Part shown: positions 21,025-54,011 of the stretch, in pieces | How positions within the stretch are numbered: position 1 is the stretch's first letter | Layout of the letters: every line of letters starts with the position of its first letter | Assembly (NCBI GenBank): GCA_016196035.1 | Contig: JACPYM010000011.1 | Coordinates: forward strand, 1 to 64,000 | Reading direction: 5' to 3' | Source: Acidobacteriota bacterium | GTDB taxonomy: Bacteria > Acidobacteriota > Blastocatellia > RBC074 | DNA length: 64,000 nt | Translations under genes and position numbers: made by a program | Notes under the pieces: generated by a model | The model's input: only the letters and a program-made list of their open reading frames with translations | Databases searched by the model: none | Told to the model about the DNA's origin: nothing

Positions 21025-23055
21025 ATGTCCAAGCCTGAGAGTTCCTTATACGAGTTCGGCGAATTTCAACTGGATGCCGCGCGGCGCTTGTTATTGCGCC
21101 AGGGCGAGCCGGTGACGATTGCGCCGAAGGTTTATGAGGTGCTGCTGGCGCTGGTCGAAACGCCGGGCCAACCACTGAGCAAGGATGAATTGTTGCGCCG
21201 CGTCTGGCCTGACACGGTGGTTGAGGAGAGCAACCTGACGGTCAGCGTCTCGGCCCTGCGCAAGGTGCTGGGCGAACGGCGCGACGAGCATCAATTCATC
21301 GCCACGCTGCCCGGTATCGGTTATCAATTTGTCGCGCCGGTCAGTCAGCTAGAAAACAACCCGCCAGAAGAGGGGGGGCGCGGGTACGGAACGGGGAGCG
21401 TGAGCGACCTGCACCTGGGCAAGGGGCGCGAACCGCAAGCTCAGGTCGCTCACGCTCCCCGTTCCGTACCACTGGCTGAACAGGTGCTCGAACGCCAGAC
21501 CATCGCGCAAGTCGTGATCGAAGAAGAGACCGAGGCCGAGACGCACGCGCGCACAACTCCGCCGCTGCAATTACCGGCTCCACGCCGGAGCTTCGTTGCG
21601 ACGCGCTGGCTGGCGCTGGGCGGCGCGGCGTTGCTGTTGGTGGCGGCCTTGGCTTGGTACTTCCGGCGTGAAGCGCCCGCCAACAGCGGTCAGGTGCGTT
21701 CGCTGGCCGTGCTGCCGTTCACAGAGTTGGGCCAGTCCCAAGCGGATTCCGCGCTTGGCTTAGGCATGGCCGATACGCTCATCAGCCGGCTGGGCAGCCT
21801 CGGTCAAATCGAAGTGCGCCCGACCGCCGCCATTCGCCGCTATGCGGGCCAGACCGCCGACCCGCTGGCCGCCGGGCGCGAGCTGCGCGTCGAAGCCGTG
21901 CTGAGCGCCAACCTGCAACGCCAGGGGCAGACCCTGCGCGTGACCGCGCAATTGGTGCGCATCAACGATCAACACACGCTGTGGTCGGACACGCTGGACG
22001 AACAGGCCACGCGGCTTTTCACCTTGCAGGACAACCTCAGCGCGCGGCTGGCCGCGGCCCTGGCCTTGCCGCTCAGCGCGCGCGACCGCGAACGCCTGAC
22101 CAAACACGGCACCGCGAATATCGAGGCTTATCAGCTTTACCTGAAAGGCCGGCTGTTCTGGAACCGGCGCACGCCGGAATGGATTGCGAAAGGGATCGAG
22201 TCTTTCGAGCAGGCGCTGCAGTTGGATCAGCAATACGCGCTGGCTTGGGCGGGGCTGGCTGATTGCTATGTGCTCAGCTCTTCGGGGCTGCCCGCGCTGG
22301 AACGCATGCCCAAAGCCCACGCGGCGGTCGAGCGGGCCTTGCAACTGGACGAGCAATTGGCCGAAGCGCACGCCACGCGCGGGCTGATCAAATTCAAGTT
22401 CGATTTTGATCTGGCGGGCGCCGAGACGGCCTTTCAACGCGCCATCGAATTGAACCCGAATTACGCGACGACTTTTCACTGGTATGGCGACTGTCTCTCG
22501 CGCCTGGATCGTTTCGACGAAGCGTTGCGGCTGTTGCGCCAGGCCGAACGCCTAGACCCGCTGGCGCTGGCGCTCAAAGAGGACATCGGCACGGTCTATT
22601 ACCGCATGCGGCGTTACGCCGAAGCGGAAAAGCAATACCGCGACGTGCTGGCGATTGACCCGGGCTTTGCGCGCACGGTCGGCATGCTGGCCCTGGTTGA
22701 CGCGGCGCAGGGCCGTTACGACGAAGCCGTCGCCATGCATTTGCACAAACAGGAACTCGCGGCGGCCCCGCCCGCCGAGTTGAGCGCGTTCAAGCAGGCC
22801 TATCAACAAGGCGGCTGGGCCGGATACTGGCGCAAGTATCGCGCGGCGAACGGCGAAAAAAAGGGTAACGCCTACGAGAACGCGCGGCTCGCGTTGCGGC
22901 TGGGCGAACGCGCGCGCGCTTATGAATGGCTGGAGCAATCCTTCGCCGATCACAGCGGCATTCAGATCGACATCAAGAACGACCCCGAAATGGACCCGCT
23001 GCGCGCCGAGCCACGCTTTCAAGCGTTGCTGCGGCGTTGTGGATTCGCGCCTTAG
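21025..23055 (+). CDS. CadC-like winged-helix transcriptional regulator with TPR sensor region
   Basis: This is a 676-residue protein. The N-terminal OmpR/PhoB-type winged helix (residues 8-107) includes FQLDAARRLLLRQGEPVTIA, KDELLRRVWPDTVVEESNL and RRDEHQFIATLPGIGYQF. Residues 108-195 are a linker of which 120-149 are encoded by a perfect DNA palindrome (separate entry). A membrane segment lies at about 195-214 (WLALGGAALLLVAALAWYF). The periplasmic part has a FlgO/TolB-N-like domain (SLAVLPFTELGQ) and then TPRs from about 370. Architecture matches membrane-bound CadC-type regulators with one-component signalling. Targets unknown. Confidence 0.9.
   Translation: MSKPESSLYEFGEFQLDAARRLLLRQGEPVTIAPKVYEVLLALVETPGQPLSKDELLRRVWPDTVVEESNLTVSVSALRKVLGERRDEHQFIATLPGIGYQFVAPVSQLENNPPEEGGRGYGTGSVSDLHLGKGREPQAQVAHAPRSVPLAEQVLERQTIAQVVIEEETEAETHARTTPPLQLPAPRRSFVATRWLALGGAALLLVAALAWYFRREAPANSGQVRSLAVLPFTELGQSQADSALGLGMADTLISRLGSLGQIEVRPTAAIRRYAGQTADPLAAGRELRVEAVLSANLQRQGQTLRVTAQLVRINDQHTLWSDTLDEQATRLFTLQDNLSARLAAALALPLSARDRERLTKHGTANIEAYQLYLKGRLFWNRRTPEWIAKGIESFEQALQLDQQYALAWAGLADCYVLSSSGLPALERMPKAHAAVERALQLDEQLAEAHATRGLIKFKFDFDLAGAETAFQRAIELNPNYATTFHWYGDCLSRLDRFDEALRLLRQAERLDPLALALKEDIGTVYYRMRRYAEAEKQYRDVLAIDPGFARTVGMLALVDAAQGRYDEAVAMHLHKQELAAAPPAELSAFKQAYQQGGWAGYWRKYRAANGEKKGNAYENARLALRLGERARAYEWLEQSFADHSGIQIDIKNDPEMDPLRAEPRFQALLRRCGFAP
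21383..21470. repeat. Palindromic repeat, type B copy 1, inside a reading frame
   Basis: The arms 21383-21411 and 21442-21470 are perfect 29-base complements (GGTACGGAACGGGGAGCGTG... and ...CACGCTCCCCGTTCCGTACC). The loop is 30 bases. It keeps the frame of the CadC-like regulator and encodes about 30 residues between the DNA-binding domain and the membrane segment. Confidence 0.95.
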
Positions 23056-23101
23056 CGCGATTGGCAATTTGGCGTAGGGCAGTAGCCGCGCAGCCCGGTA
23101 C

Positions 23102-23184
23102 GGTACCGCGCGCGTGAGCAAGCGGCGCTTAGGCTGCCACACCAGTCCGCCGTACTTGACGTGCCACTTGCTCACGCGCGGCAC
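23102..23184. repeat. Palindromic repeat, type B copy 2
   Basis: The left arm 23102-23125 (GGTACCGCGCGCGTGAGCAA) pairs imperfectly with the right arm 23164-23184 (CACTTGCTCACGCGCGGCAC). It lies between the regulator stop and the next secreted protein. It is closely similar to the copy at 37055-37146. Confidence 0.85.
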
Positions 23185-23323
23185 TGTCCCAGCTTTGAGC
23201 ACGCTTGGCGAGAAATTTGAGGCCCGCCTAAATACAATCACACCACTCTCTGCGTATGTTGTGAAGCAGGGAAGGCCACGCCTTTCCACGCAGGCAACAA
23301 GTCCACAAAAGAGGAGTCGCATC

Positions 23324-26659: not shown

Positions 26660-26670
26660 AACCACGATTC

Positions 26671-26748
26671 GGTACCGGGAGCGGTAGCGACTGGGCGCTT
26701 GGCACTCGCATAAACTGCCAAGCACCCGATCGCTACAGCTCCCGGTAC
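26671..26748. repeat. Palindromic repeat, type B copy 5
   Basis: The left arm 26671-26704 (GGTACCGGGAGCGGTAGCGA...) and right arm 26716-26748 (...TCGCTACAGCTCCCGGTAC) form a long hairpin in the gap before the enoyl-CoA hydratase gene. The loop is 11 bases. Confidence 0.9.
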
Positions 26749-26761
26749 TGTCAAGCACGCC

Positions 26762-27538
26762 ATGACTTACGAATACCTGCTCGTCGAAACCGCCGCCGCG
26801 ATCACGCGCATTACGCTCAATCACCCGGCCCGCCGTAACGCGCTCTCGCTGGCGCTGATGCGGGAGTTGACCGCGTGTTTGCGCAGCGTGAGCCAATCCG
26901 CCGCAACGCGTGCCGTGATTCTGGCGGCCAACGGGCCAGCCTTTTCCGCTGGGCACGACCTGCGCGAAATGCTTGACCGCAGTGTTGCTGAGTACCGCGC
27001 ACTGTTCGATGCCTGCGTGGAGTTGATGACCACCATCCAAAGCATCCCGCAACCTGTCATTGCCGAAGTGCAGGGCATCGCGACAGCCGCCGGTTGCCAA
27101 CTGGTCGCCACTTGCGATCTGGCGGTGGCCAGCGAAACGGCAACCTTTGCCACGCCCGGCGTGCGCATCGGCCTGTTTTGCAGCACGCCGATGGTCGCCC
27201 TGACGCGCGCGCTTGGCCGCAAACGCGCGTTACAAATGCTGCTGACCGGCGCGCCGATTGACGCGCGCACCGCAGTCGAATGGGGCCTCATCAACCAGGC
27301 CGTGCCTGCTGACCAACTTCGCATTACGACCGAAGAACTCGCCGCGCAAATTGCCGCAGCCAGTTCACTGACCGTCGGCCTCGGCAAACAGGCGTTTTAC
27401 GCCCAACTCGAATTGGAGCAAACCAAAGCTTATGCCTACACCAAAGAAGTCATGAGCCTGAACGCGCTGGCCGCTGATGCCCAGGAAGGCATGGGCGCGT
27501 TTTTAGAAAAACGGCCCGCCTGCTGGAAGGGAAGATAG
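26762..27538 (+). CDS. Enoyl-CoA hydratase/isomerase family protein (ECHDC3-like)
   Basis: This is a 258-residue crotonase-fold protein. It has the oxyanion-hole signature PAFSAGHDLREM and the second glycine-rich segment IAEVQGIATAAGCQLVATCD. The ITLNHPARRNALSLALM opening and the TPMVALTRALGRKRALQMLLTG segment resemble ECHDC3-type members. Whether it hydrates enoyl-CoA is uncertain, since the catalytic glutamates of classical hydratases are not obvious. Length is typical. pssA follows after a 74-bp hairpin of TGGTCAG units, so the pair may be one transcript. Confidence 0.85.
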   Translation: MTYEYLLVETAAAITRITLNHPARRNALSLALMRELTACLRSVSQSAATRAVILAANGPAFSAGHDLREMLDRSVAEYRALFDACVELMTTIQSIPQPVIAEVQGIATAAGCQLVATCDLAVASETATFATPGVRIGLFCSTPMVALTRALGRKRALQMLLTGAPIDARTAVEWGLINQAVPADQLRITTEELAAQIAAASSLTVGLGKQAFYAQLELEQTKAYAYTKEVMSLNALAADAQEGMGAFLEKRPACWKGR

Positions 27539-27609
27539 TGGCTAGTGGTCAGTGGTCAGTGGTCAGTAACCGCCAACCACTGACCACTGACCACTGACCA
27601 CTAGCCACT
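27537..27609. repeat. Hairpin with arms of tandem 7-mers (TGGTCAG type)
   Basis: The left arm 27537-27567 has three tandem GTCAGTG units and the right arm 27576-27609 has the complementary CACTGAC units. Outer ends (GTGGCTAG and CTAGCCAC) also pair. It fills the space between the stop of one gene and the start of pssA. Confidence 0.95.
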
Positions 27610-28252: not shown

Positions 28253-28550
28253 ACACGAGAAACTAAGTTATCTCGTGTTTTGAAAATTGTTTTTGCCGCA
28301 GAGCGGCGGTTGAATTTAGCCGTGGGTTTTCAACCCACGGTATCCGCTACAAACTACAAACCCGCGTCGCGTCAGCGACGCTTGAATGGCCGCGTGTTTC
28401 AAGCGTCGCTGACGCGACGCGCAATTGATTGTGCGCTGCCCGTGGGTTGAAAACCCACGGCTAAATTCAACCGCCGCTCTGCGGCGAAGAGTGCGCTGCC
28501 CGTGGGTTGAAAACCCACGGCTAAATTCAACCGCCGCTCTGCGGCGAAGA
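28253..28550. repeat. Composite palindromic repeat, type A copy 2
   Basis: It starts with the hairpin ACACGAGA (28253-28260) / TCTCGTGT (28271-28278). It continues through the CGTGGGTTTTCAACCCACG hairpin and the GTCGCGTCAGCGAC inverted repeat. To about 28450 it is the reverse complement of 1-192, with few differences. A 60-bp unit is then duplicated (separate entry). No gene is present in 28210-28633. Confidence 0.95.
28431..28550. repeat. Exact 2 x 60-bp tandem duplication
   Basis: 28431-28490 and 28491-28550 are identical. Each has GTGCGCTGCC, the CGTGGGTTGAAAACCCACGG hairpin, and a CCGCCGCTCTGCGGCG hairpin. It is a local amplification of one module of the type A repeat. Confidence 0.98.
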
Positions 28551-37023: not shown

Positions 37024-37251
37024 TTCAGTTTACGGGAAAAGAGCCGCGCCTCAAGACGGTATCGCGCGCGTGAGCAAGCGGAGCCTGTGCGATTCGGACA
37101 ATGGCGTAAGCTTGACGCGCCGCTTGCTCACGCGCGCGGTACCGTCCCGGCACAAGCTGCTCCCGTAAACGCGATTGCAAACCGCTCTAAGTGAAAGGTA
37201 GCGTATCAATAACACCGGTGGCAGTAAATCCGCAATCCGCAATCCGCAATC
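36943..37251. repeat. Split inverted pair of tandem 7-mers (GATTGCG / CGCAATC)
   Basis: The left block 36943-36970 has four GATTGCG units and overlaps the 5' end of the MetE-like reading frame. The right block 37228-37251 has complementary CGCAATC units. Between them lies type B copy 3 (37055-37146), so the palindromes are nested. 37024-37378 holds no gene. Confidence 0.85.
37055..37146. repeat. Palindromic repeat, type B copy 3
   Basis: The arms 37055-37081 (GACGGTATCGCGCGCGTGAG...) and 37120-37146 (CCGCTTGCTCACGCGCGCGG...) are nearly perfect complements. The right flank (TTGCAAACCGCTCTAAGTG) resembles the flank of copy 4 at 40955-41080. Confidence 0.93.
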
Positions 37252-40954: not shown

Positions 40955-41080
40955 GTACGGGCGGCGCTCCGGGGCAGTACCGCGCGTCAGCAAGTGGAGA
41001 CTCAGGGTGTACCGTATTGCGCCAGCGTTGACGCACCGCTTGCTGACGCGCGCGGTACTGCTCCGGAGCGCCGCCCGTAC
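40955..41080. repeat. Palindromic repeat, type B copy 4
   Basis: The arms of about 43-45 bases, 40955-40997 and 41036-41080, contain GTACGGGCGGCGCTCCGGGG and its complement, then GTACCGCGCGTCAGCAAG. It lies in the 341-bp gap 40882-41222, which contains no gene. Confidence 0.95.
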
Positions 41081-45168: not shown

Positions 45169-47346
45169 GTGCAAAAGATTTGCCCCCAGTGCCAGCAGCC
45201 CGCCAGTGAAAGCCAGCAATTTTGTGTGCATTGCGGCGCCGCGTTCAGCGGTCAGCGCGCGCCCACCGAACCGACGCAACTGATGCTGGCGCCAAGCATC
45301 AAGAAAGCCCCACCCGACGAATTGATTGGCCGCCTGCTCGACGGCAAATATCAATTGCAGGCACGCATCGGCGCGGGTGGGATGGGCGCTGTTTACCAGG
45401 CGCGGCGCGTGCACATCGGCGACGAAGTCGCGGTCAAGGTTTTGCACGCGCAATACGTCACCGAAGCCAGCGCCGTTGAACGCTTTCGCCGCGAAGCGCG
45501 CGCTGCCGCGATGTTGCGCCACCCCAGCGTCGTCGCCATCTATGATTTTGGCGAGGCGCGCGGCAACGATCCGGCCTTTATCGTAATGGAGTTGGTCGAA
45601 GGTCTTTCGCTGCGTGCGCTGTTGCAACGCGAACGCCGCTTGCCGCCAGAGCGCGCGGTGGCCCTGATGCGCGAAATCTGTGCCGGTGTCGGCGCGGCGC
45701 ATCGGCATAATGTCGTTCACCGCGACCTCAAACCCGACAATGTGATCGTCACCGCGCCCGCGCACACAGGCGAATTCGAGAAGGTCAAAGTCCTCGATTT
45801 CGGCATCGCCAAATTGCGCGACCTGACGCCCGATCAGAGCCTGACGCAAACCGGCGCGGTGCTGGGCACGCCCTATTACATGTCGCCCGAACAATGCCGC
45901 GGCGATGTGCTGGATGCGCGGTCGGATGTCTACAGTTTGGGCGCGATGCTTTATGAAATGATCGCGGGCCAGCCGCCTTTCACGGCCAATACGATCACGG
46001 GCGTGGTGGCGAAGCATTTGACCGAAACGCCCGTGCCGGTCAATCAACATACGACCGTGGCGCCCGCGCTCGAAGCCTCGATCATGCGCGCGCTGGCAAA
46101 AGACCCCAATTGGCGGCAGACCGATGCCATCGCCTTTGCCCGTGATTTGCAAAGCGCGCTGCAAGGCGCCGGGGGACGCATCATTGAACTGACGCCGGAA
46201 CCATCTTCTGCCAGCCGCCCGGTATCGTTTGGTGAAGCCACTGTTGCCATGCCGCCGCCACAGCCAACGATGCCGCCGCGGGCCGCACAGACGGTGCCGC
46301 CGGCAACGGCGTCAACCAGCAGGCCGTCAGCGCCTTCTTTTTCCCAGCCTTCCATGCAGGCACAGGCAAGGCAAGTCGTGCCGGTCGCGCACCCCGTGAC
46401 GTTGTTGCCCTCAGCCGTTGAGAAAACTGCCAAGCAGAGCCGCAATCTGGTGTATTGGGCCAGCATTAGCGCCACCGTATTGATTTTGTTGGCTGGCGTG
46501 GCCGCCTGGCTGGTGCGGCACGCAGAATCGGTCAACAACCGGGCTGTCGCCAGCGCTTCGCCGAGTCCGACACCGCCCCCCGTGGCTTCGCCACCCAATG
46601 CCAAAGTGCTGGCCGCGACCACCGCCCCGGCGGATGACGCCACCACCTATGCCAAGCCGCTGAGCGTGCCCCGCGCTGAAAGCGCCGAGGCGCTTTTGGC
46701 CCACGGCGAAGCCCTGTCCGAAAAAGATTTGGTCGAGTTGGGCGTGCCAGAATTGCGCATCTTGCGAAATACCGTGTATGCGCGGCATGGCCGGATGTTT
46801 GAATCGCCTGGGTTGCAGCGCTATTTCGGCAGCCGCTCCTGGTATAAGCCAAACACGGCGTATACCGATGAACTGCTGACCGAAGCCGACCGCACCAACC
46901 TGGAAGTAATTGCCACCGCCGAACGCCAGGCCAGGACGACCCAAGCCACGACGGCGCACGCGTCCAGCCGCTTGAGCGACCAGTACGGGCCGGAAAACAC
47001 CCGCGATGATCGCGTCGAATCCGCGTGGGTCGAGGGCGTCAAAGGCCCCGGCGTGGGCGAATGGATTGCCTTCACCTTCAAACCGCAGACGATTCAATAC
47101 CTCGAAATCTATCCCGGCTACGGCAAAAGCAAAGACCTCTTTTTCGCCAATCACCGGCTCAAACGCGCCACGCTGATCTTTTCGGACGGCACCCGCGTGG
47201 CCGTGCAGCTTTTCGATGAAATGCGCGTGCAAACCGTCGCGCTGCCCGCCCTTGTGCACACCAGTTCACTGCGGCTGATCATCGAAGAAGTTTTCCCCGG
47301 CGCGCAATACGATGACACCGCCATCGCCGAGATAAGCTGGCGCTGA
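45169..47346 (+). CDS. Membrane Ser/Thr protein kinase with zinc ribbon, YARHG and glycan-binding-like domains
   Basis: This is a 725-residue protein, GTG start with AGAGG upstream. The zinc ribbon has Cys5, 8, 19 and 22. The kinase domain (about 60-320) has the glycine loop IGAGGMGAVYQ, VAVKVL, VHRDLKPDNV (about 183) and KVLDFGIAKL. A Pro-rich linker precedes the membrane segment (about 425-445). The outer part has a YARHG domain (about 518-582; LRILRNTVYARHGRMF) and a C-terminal discoidin-like NADase-type glycan-binding domain (about 600-725; WIAFTFKPQTIQYLEIYPGY). It is a Hanks-type kinase likely sensing an envelope or cell-wall ligand. PP2C is 2.2 kb away. Confidence 0.9.
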   Translation: MQKICPQCQQPASESQQFCVHCGAAFSGQRAPTEPTQLMLAPSIKKAPPDELIGRLLDGKYQLQARIGAGGMGAVYQARRVHIGDEVAVKVLHAQYVTEASAVERFRREARAAAMLRHPSVVAIYDFGEARGNDPAFIVMELVEGLSLRALLQRERRLPPERAVALMREICAGVGAAHRHNVVHRDLKPDNVIVTAPAHTGEFEKVKVLDFGIAKLRDLTPDQSLTQTGAVLGTPYYMSPEQCRGDVLDARSDVYSLGAMLYEMIAGQPPFTANTITGVVAKHLTETPVPVNQHTTVAPALEASIMRALAKDPNWRQTDAIAFARDLQSALQGAGGRIIELTPEPSSASRPVSFGEATVAMPPPQPTMPPRAAQTVPPATASTSRPSAPSFSQPSMQAQARQVVPVAHPVTLLPSAVEKTAKQSRNLVYWASISATVLILLAGVAAWLVRHAESVNNRAVASASPSPTPPPVASPPNAKVLAATTAPADDATTYAKPLSVPRAESAEALLAHGEALSEKDLVELGVPELRILRNTVYARHGRMFESPGLQRYFGSRSWYKPNTAYTDELLTEADRTNLEVIATAERQARTTQATTAHASSRLSDQYGPENTRDDRVESAWVEGVKGPGVGEWIAFTFKPQTIQYLEIYPGYGKSKDLFFANHRLKRATLIFSDGTRVAVQLFDEMRVQTVALPALVHTSSLRLIIEEVFPGAQYDDTAIAEISWR

Positions 47347-47348
47347 AA

Positions 47349-47483
47349 CAGACTTCAGACCTCAGACCTCAGACCTCAGACCTCAGACGGGCAAAGCATA
47401 ACCAAATCACTTCGAGCTTGAGGTCTGAAGTCTGAAGTCTGAAGTCTGAGGTCTGAGGTCTGAGGTCTGAAGTCTGAGGTCTG
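47349..47483. repeat. Hairpin with arms of tandem 7-mers (CCTCAGA / TCTGAGG)
   Basis: The left arm 47349-47388 is tandem ACCTCAG units. The right arm 47421-47483 is the complementary TCTGAGG and TCTGAAG units, about nine in number. The arms differ in copy number. It fills the gap between the kinase stop and the kdsB start. Confidence 0.95.
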
Positions 47484-47486
47484 TTT

Positions 47487-53564: not shown

Positions 53565-53569
53565 ACGGG

Positions 53570-53827
53570 TTTTCGTCGCGTAGCGACGGGGGGAATTTAG
53601 CCGTGGGTTTCAACCCACGGTGGGCAGTGCACATTTCCCCGCGTCGCGTAGCGACGCTTGAAGGATTGAGGAGAAAACACCTTGACTAATCCCGAACCTC
53701 TTTTCTTCCCTGCACGACCTAAAGCCGTAGCGGATTCAGGCGTCGCTACGCGACGCGGGAACGCTCGTCTTCCCAACCGTAGGTTGAAACCCACGGCTAA
53801 ATTCACCCCGTCGCTACGCGACGAAAA
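53570..53827. repeat. Composite palindromic repeat, type A copy 3 (complete inverted repeat)
   Basis: Outer arms TTTTCGTCGCGTAGCGACG (from 53570) and CGTCGCTACGCGACGAAAA (to 53827) pair perfectly. Inside are GAATTTAGCCGTGGGTTTCA with its complement TGAAACCCACGGCTAAATTC, and a second GCGTCGCGTAGCGACGC pair. The whole unit is a nested palindrome of about 258 bp. It begins 5 bp after the NarL gene stop. Apart from the receiver-only gene, 53565-54011 holds nothing else recognisable. Confidence 0.95.
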
Positions 53828-54011
53828 CACCTGCCCCGCGCGCAATCAGCCCAATCAGCCCAACCTTTTCCTGACTACACGCCTAAGTGGAAACACCCAG
53901 CAAAATGAGTGGAAACACTCAGGCATTTTGTGAGGGTTCCTCTATACCCAACGCGCGCTTCCTGCCGTAGCTTCCTCGGTGTCCCCACATCCCCCCAAAG
54001 AGGTGAACGGA

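What the first reader, a model, noticed from the sequence alone, without database searches (positions are those of the whole stretch)
21383..21470. Perfect 29-base-arm palindrome inserted in frame in the CadC-like regulator
The palindrome codes for about 30 residues between the winged-helix domain and the membrane segment, a tolerant linker. This resembles repeat elements that insert in frame into genes, such as the Rickettsia palindromic elements. The other four type B copies here are intergenic.
Basis: partly seen in the sequence, partly recalled or inferred. Interest (0 to 1): 0.55.

Follow-up and report, generated by a model that had tools for sequence, protein, structure and literature searches.

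The report
Palindromic mobile element inside a gene
A short hairpin-shaped mobile DNA element, one of a large family in this bacterium, appears to have inserted into a regulator gene without breaking its reading frame, and the same family seems to have done so in several other genes here and in related species.

Summary
The palindrome is real: two 29-base arms, 100% complementary, 30-base loop, inside an intact 676-codon ORF. It belongs to a dispersed family, 73 copies in 1.66 Mb of its own genome, with the anatomy of a REPIN (two inverted REPs). Arms of this family flank a Y1/HUH-like transposase in the same genome and a 61%-identical one in a relative. The closest published description is class 3 TnpA_Y1 (PMC6006769).

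In-frame insertion recurs. Of 137 copies examined, 7 were flagged as read through by coding-like sequence; 6 survive inspection. All 6 have lengths of 1 mod 3, against 22 of 131 others (Fisher p = 4.6e-5). An aminotransferase has exactly 30 extra residues against 7 of 10 homologues. RNase R of two related species shares one in-frame copy; a third has a likely remnant.

REPs inside ORFs are already published (PMC3733652); what is new is this element class and the frame-length evidence. Mobility and protein function are inferred.

The parts
21025..23055 (+). Host gene: CadC-like regulator, 676 aa, winged helix (Trans_reg_C, residues 27-102), linker, probable membrane segment, TPR repeats
21383..21411 (+). 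Left arm (REP), 29 nt
   Evidence: 100% complementary to the right arm
21412..21441 (+). Loop, 30 nt
21442..21470 (-). Right arm (REP in inverse orientation), 29 nt
21382..21471 (+). Inferred net insert, 90 nt / 30 codons; the exact borders are not shown for this gene
   Evidence: inference from the homologous aminotransferase insert
21387..21390 (+). CGGA foot of the left REP (CNGW type)
   Evidence: sequence; foot columns
21463..21466 (-). CGGA foot of the right REP
   Evidence: sequence
23094..23193 (.). Further family copy, not spanned by coding sequence
26663..26757 (.). Further family copy, not spanned by coding sequence
37050..37151 (.). Further copy; its arms resemble the REP beside a second own-genome transposase (C64, L116)
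40968..41067 (.). Further family copy, not spanned by coding sequence

Best explanation
The palindrome is a REPIN: a non-autonomous doublet of inverted REPs that spreads by a Y1/HUH single-strand transposase, most likely the P0002 type encoded at G000:C18:9660-10229 between arms of the same family. It inserts as a unit with fixed ends. Here the net length is a multiple of three and one frame through the element is open, so the insertion added about 30 residues to a tolerant linker instead of destroying the gene. Shown: family, copy number, linkage to the transposase, absence from the homologues examined, recurrence of in-frame copies, length constraint. Inferred: movement by P0002, the single-strand mechanism, and that the longer protein is made and works.
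For: 73 copies in 1.66 Mb. Paired arms with covariation: 8 of 28 pairs changed on both sides, 0 of 500 shuffles as high. Arms beside P0002 and a complete palindrome on each side of its 61%-identical homologue in G003. 13 of 15 homologue loci searched have inverted repeats near the gene. 18 regulator homologues lack the peptide. Aminotransferase: 30 extra residues against 7 of 10 homologues. Length phase 6 of 6 against 22 of 131. Shared copy in RNase R of G006 and G010.
Against: No empty site of this very gene in a close strain; the best homologue is about 40-42% identical. P0002 itself matches no Pfam or NCBIfam model and has no relevant PDB relative. No P0002 homologue at E <= 1e-10 in G006 or G010, which also carry in-frame copies. 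Coding status rests on codon statistics, not on a gene caller. No direct sign of recent movement, and the element's ends are not seen directly.
Confidence: 0.82

Rival explanations
1. A MITE of an ordinary cut-and-paste (DDE) transposon: terminal inverted repeats with an eroded interior, moved by an unrelated transposase.
For: Some loop conservation between copies; long inverted repeats flank homologues of P0002 as TIRs would.
Against: The gene flanked by family arms codes for a protein with HUH-like (TNHxH) and Y-4-Q signatures, and its 49%-identical paralogue passes the Y1_Tnp model. No direct repeats flank the window copy. I did not search for DDE transposases.
Confidence: 0.08
2. The hairpin is kept for a regulatory role in the mRNA (attenuation, stability) and the in-frame position is incidental.
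For: Very stable predicted hairpin, z -8.72.
Against: Hosts are unrelated genes; the RNase R copy in G008 looks decayed and G006 has an added partial duplication, which does not suggest a conserved hairpin. It does not compete with a mobile origin.
Confidence: 0.07
3. The palindrome arose in place by local duplication and inversion inside the gene.
For: Local repeat growth does happen: the G006 RNase R copy holds a partial tandem duplication.
Against: The same arms occur at dozens of unlinked sites.
Confidence: 0.01

Closest known systems
Class 3 TnpA_Y1 genes and their REP-like structures (Quentin et al. 2018, PMC6006769; passages and section 27 seen)
   Same: Protein of about 178-190 aa with NHxH, W[TA] and Y-4-Q; several flanking structures; 5' foot CnGA in 10 of 14 loci; many genomic copies
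   Different: Foot is CnGT in 4 of 14 loci; paired palindromes of REPIN form; in-frame gene insertions are not mentioned in the parts I saw; no tree was made
REPINs and RAYTs (Bertels and Rainey 2011, PMC3116915; abstract and passages seen)
   Same: Inverted REP doublets forming a hairpin, dispersed, with a Y1 transposase nearby
   Different: Foot is not GTAG; a minority of copies lie inside genes in frame; those of Pseudomonas fluorescens are described as primarily extragenic
Intragenic GTAG and CGTC REPs (PMC3733652; passages and section 15 seen)
   Same: REP dimers inside ORFs coding 20-30 aa
   Different: Other REP classes; CGTC repeats have no linked transposase according to that paper
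Rickettsia palindromic elements (from review PMC10969869, section 13; original papers not held)
   Same: Palindromes inserted in frame in unrelated genes, each coding a conserved peptide
   Different: About 150 bp there, about 90-114 nt here; no sequence comparison was made

Membership tests
REPIN (inverted REP doublet) | Two REPs in inverse orientation that pair into one hairpin | tested here: met
REPIN (inverted REP doublet) | Dispersed, mostly extragenic copies | tested here: met
   131 of 137 copies not kept as in-frame gene insertions; codon statistics only, 5 'split' copies unresolved
REPIN (inverted REP doublet) | Linked Y1 transposase flanked by the same REP | tested here: met
Class 3 TnpA_Y1 | HUH motif NHxH, W[TA], Y-4-Q, about 178 aa | tested here: met
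   P0002 has NHAH, WA, YVLYHQ, 190 residues; signature
Class 3 TnpA_Y1 | Flanking structures with 5' foot CnGA | tested here: inconclusive
   CnGA in 10 and CnGT in 4 of 14 loci, read by eye
Class 3 TnpA_Y1 | Falls in the class 3 clade of a tree | not tested
   published sequences were not compared
GTAG REP / class 2 RAYT | GTAG tetranucleotide at the REP foot | tested here: not met
   The foot of this family is CNGW followed by AC
Rickettsia palindromic elements | Recurrent in-frame insertion in unrelated genes with a shared peptide | tested here: met
   a likeness of behaviour only
Rickettsia palindromic elements | Sequence homology to RPE families | not tested
   No RPE sequence was fetched; membership is not claimed

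The most novel reading that the evidence does not exclude
This REP/transposase family is able to live inside genes as well as between them: fixed ends, copies of matching length and one open frame make it a recurrent donor of a similar peptide of about 30-38 residues (YGTGSVSDL...QVAHAPRSVP) to protein loops and linkers, sometimes lying at the join of two fused genes. It would offer a mechanism for Rickettsia-style protein-coding palindromes.
Probability: 0.15. Interest if true: 0.8.

Novelty: new variant of a known kind. Interest (0 to 1): 0.55.

Why it matters
In-frame palindromes are best known from Rickettsia; a 2024 review (PMC10969869, section 13) calls a similar process in other prokaryotes 'conceivable'. 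The 2013 survey (PMC3733652, passages and section 15) says that CGTC repeats, to which some Rickettsia elements were assigned, have no linked transposase. Here the same behaviour appears with a linked Y1-type transposase, many copies, and one copy in RNase R shared by two species. That makes it directly testable how and how often mobile palindromes lengthen proteins.

Tried and rejected
Considered: MITE of a DDE transposon, local palindrome formation, regulatory hairpin only (see rivals). PF01797 in the own genome gave 14 matches but not P0002; of those 14 loci only C33 (L095) had a family copy within the fetched flanks, about 580 bp or more from the gene with different repeats closer, so I did not take it as the cognate gene. 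P0002 against PDB gave only four weak chance-like hits (CD69, E 0.06-0.16). Flagged copy L161 (C15), one of 7, was dropped: codon scores 0.08 on both sides and a translation that looks antisense; a judgement, not a test. Five 'split' copies were not followed; they may be adjacent genes or broken ones. A first core-distance count used leftmost regex matches that can shift; it was redone with best matches, same conclusion. I first took the shared element frame of the six copies for a bias; a recheck shows that in 4 of 6 no other forward frame is open, so I withdraw that point and lowered the novel case from 0.20 to 0.15. Of the hits (a capped list) I fetched 20 regions and tested 22 frames; 5 passed a two-sided coding threshold, with codon statistics trained on G000. 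One region (L355, G006:C38) shows an open frame of 46 aa in my script against 552; unresolved and not counted. L369 had no frame spanning the match. Rfam: no match in the window. No structure prediction was run.

Full report
OBSERVATION. The window has two 29-nt arms, 21383-21411 and 21442-21470, 100% complementary with 30 nt between, inside an uninterrupted ORF, 21025-23055, 676 aa, with a Trans_reg_C domain at residues 27-102 and TPR repeats. The palindrome codes for part of the linker before the probable membrane segment (my reading of the sequence). As RNA it is far more stable than shuffles (z -8.72).

FAMILY. An arm pattern occurs 41 times in the own genome (9.59 Mb, 139 contigs) with up to 2 mismatches, against 0 for the reversed control. 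A covariance model R1 from 19 copies finds five elements in the window and 73 distinct ones in 1.658 Mb of own sequence including the window, about 420 if scaled to the genome. The whole-genome run scored only 150 of 4478 candidates, so its 139 strand matches are a lower bound. The helix pairs in 95.1% of cells, 8 of 28 pairs change on both sides, 0 of 500 shuffles reach the observed values and no slide comes near; the structure was derived from the same 19 sequences. Each arm reads as a REP: foot C[A/G]G[T/A], then AC, then an imperfect hairpin such as GGGAGC-GTGA-GCGACC, a reading by eye.

TRANSPOSASE. At G000:C18 a protein, P0002 (190 residues as translated, 189 from its Met), lies between arms of this family: one about 35 bp beyond its stop, one about 12 bp before its start and a third farther upstream. 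A 61%-identical homologue in G003 (L106) has a complete palindrome of the family on each side. P0002 matches occur in 11 of 38 genomes searched, own included, at E <= 1e-10. Of 15 homologue loci searched for inverted repeats, 13 show them near the gene, mostly with other sequences than the window's; L113 and L114 showed none in the stretch searched, and L121-L124 were not searched for inverted repeats. The aligned proteins keep GTWLxGD, a TNHxH core and a Y...Q end. P0002 hits no Pfam or NCBIfam model, but its 49%-identical paralogue at C64 passes PF01797. These traits fit the class 3 TnpA_Y1 group of Quentin et al. 2018 (PMC6006769): about 178 aa, NHVH, W[TA], Y-4-Q, 5' foot CnGA, many genomic copies. 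The foot is CnGA in 10 of 14 loci and CnGT in 4, by eye. That the host is an acidobacterium is my guess; no call names it.

IS IT AN INSERTION? Eighteen regulator homologues align without the peptide; their spacing between the winged helix and SLAVLPF is 70-114 residues, median 95, against 121 here (11 other loci left out as partial or of another architecture). The linker is variable, so this gene alone gives no exact size. The exact case is an aminotransferase at C92: from DY to PQMK it has 62 residues, against 32 in 7 of 10 homologues, 31 in one and 34 in two (alignment, DNA). Thirty extra residues are 90 nt, for an element of the same core-to-core length as the window's 88-nt palindrome.

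HOW OFTEN IN FRAME? I examined 137 copies: 73 from contiguous stretches and 64 other model matches. The script flagged 7 as read through with coding-like codons on both sides; I dropped one (C15) as not coding. The six are: this regulator; the aminotransferase (C92); a P-type copper ATPase (C57), in a loop of variable length; an SBBP/cohesin-domain protein (C86); a TIR-domain protein (C114; NACHT just under its cut-off); and a YfhO-PMT protein joined through the element (C66). In the contiguous sample 2 of 73 were flagged and only the window copy kept; the other five came from the 64 model-selected copies, so no unbiased rate can be given. All six use one element frame, peptide YGTGSVSDL...QVAHAPRSVP or variants; since in 4 of 6 no other forward frame is open, this is no evidence of a preference.

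LENGTH TEST. If the ends are fixed, only copies of one length class can sit in frame. All six in-frame copies have model-match length 1 mod 3; among the other 131, 22 do (Fisher p = 4.6e-5; without the window copy 2.2e-4). Between cores it is 6 of 6 against 18 of 122, 9 not measurable (p = 2.5e-5; without the window copy 1.3e-4). This supports fixed ends and retention of frame-keeping copies. The copies are related sequences, so p-values are a guide.

OTHER SPECIES. Of 22 frames then tested, five passed a two-sided coding test: in G010 an RNase R and a pentapeptide-repeat protein, in G001 a fused ABC permease-ATPase, and two in G006. They were found with a profile of that frame and cannot support a frame bias. 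In RNase R the copy lies between the RNB and S1 domains; G006 and G010 share it, G006 has a partial in-frame tandem duplication, and G008 keeps what looks like a decayed left arm. The other 14 aligned RNase R proteins lack the peptide, though the loop varies in length and the own genome's is long. So one insertion has probably been carried in a conserved gene since before these species split. Against a simple story: no P0002 homologue at E <= 1e-10 was found in G006 or G010.

WHAT IS KNOWN. REPs inside ORFs, including dimers coding 20-30 aa, are published for GTAG and CGTC families (PMC3733652, section 15); Rickettsia elements are the best-known case (review PMC10969869, section 13; an original paper asked for is not held). 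Searches for REPs of this kind in Acidobacteria and for REPINs in frame listed no paper that I recognised as describing in-frame class 3 elements; only parts of the long lists were shown, so this is not proof of absence. I call it a new variant of a known kind.

VERDICT. Best explanation: a REPIN of a class-3-like Y1 transposase, inserted in frame. Mobility and protein function are inferred, not shown.

Noticed in passing
G000:C64:88303-88818 (L116) and window 37050-37151: A second own-genome transposase of the P0002 type is flanked by repeats (CGGTACCGCGCGCGTGAGCAAGCGGC) that resemble the arms of the window copy at 37055-37146, so the window seems to hold copies of two REP families.
   Followed up: partly
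L252 (G000:C66) and L361 (G001:C410): In both, the element lies at the join of two domains that are often separate proteins (YfhO with PMT; ABC permease with ABC ATPase): possible gene fusion through the element.
   Followed up: partly
L368 (G010:C572), L373 (G006:C4), L371 (G008:C39): RNase R carries a shared in-frame copy between RNB and S1 domains in two species and a likely decayed left arm in a third.
   Followed up: yes
window 28292-28548 and 53569-53828: Other long inverted repeats with a CCGTGGGTT...AACCCACGG core, unlike the element studied.
   Followed up: no
window 47346-47486 and 27536-27609: Head-to-head runs of short units (CAGACCT; AGTGGTC) that form long inverted repeats.
   Followed up: no
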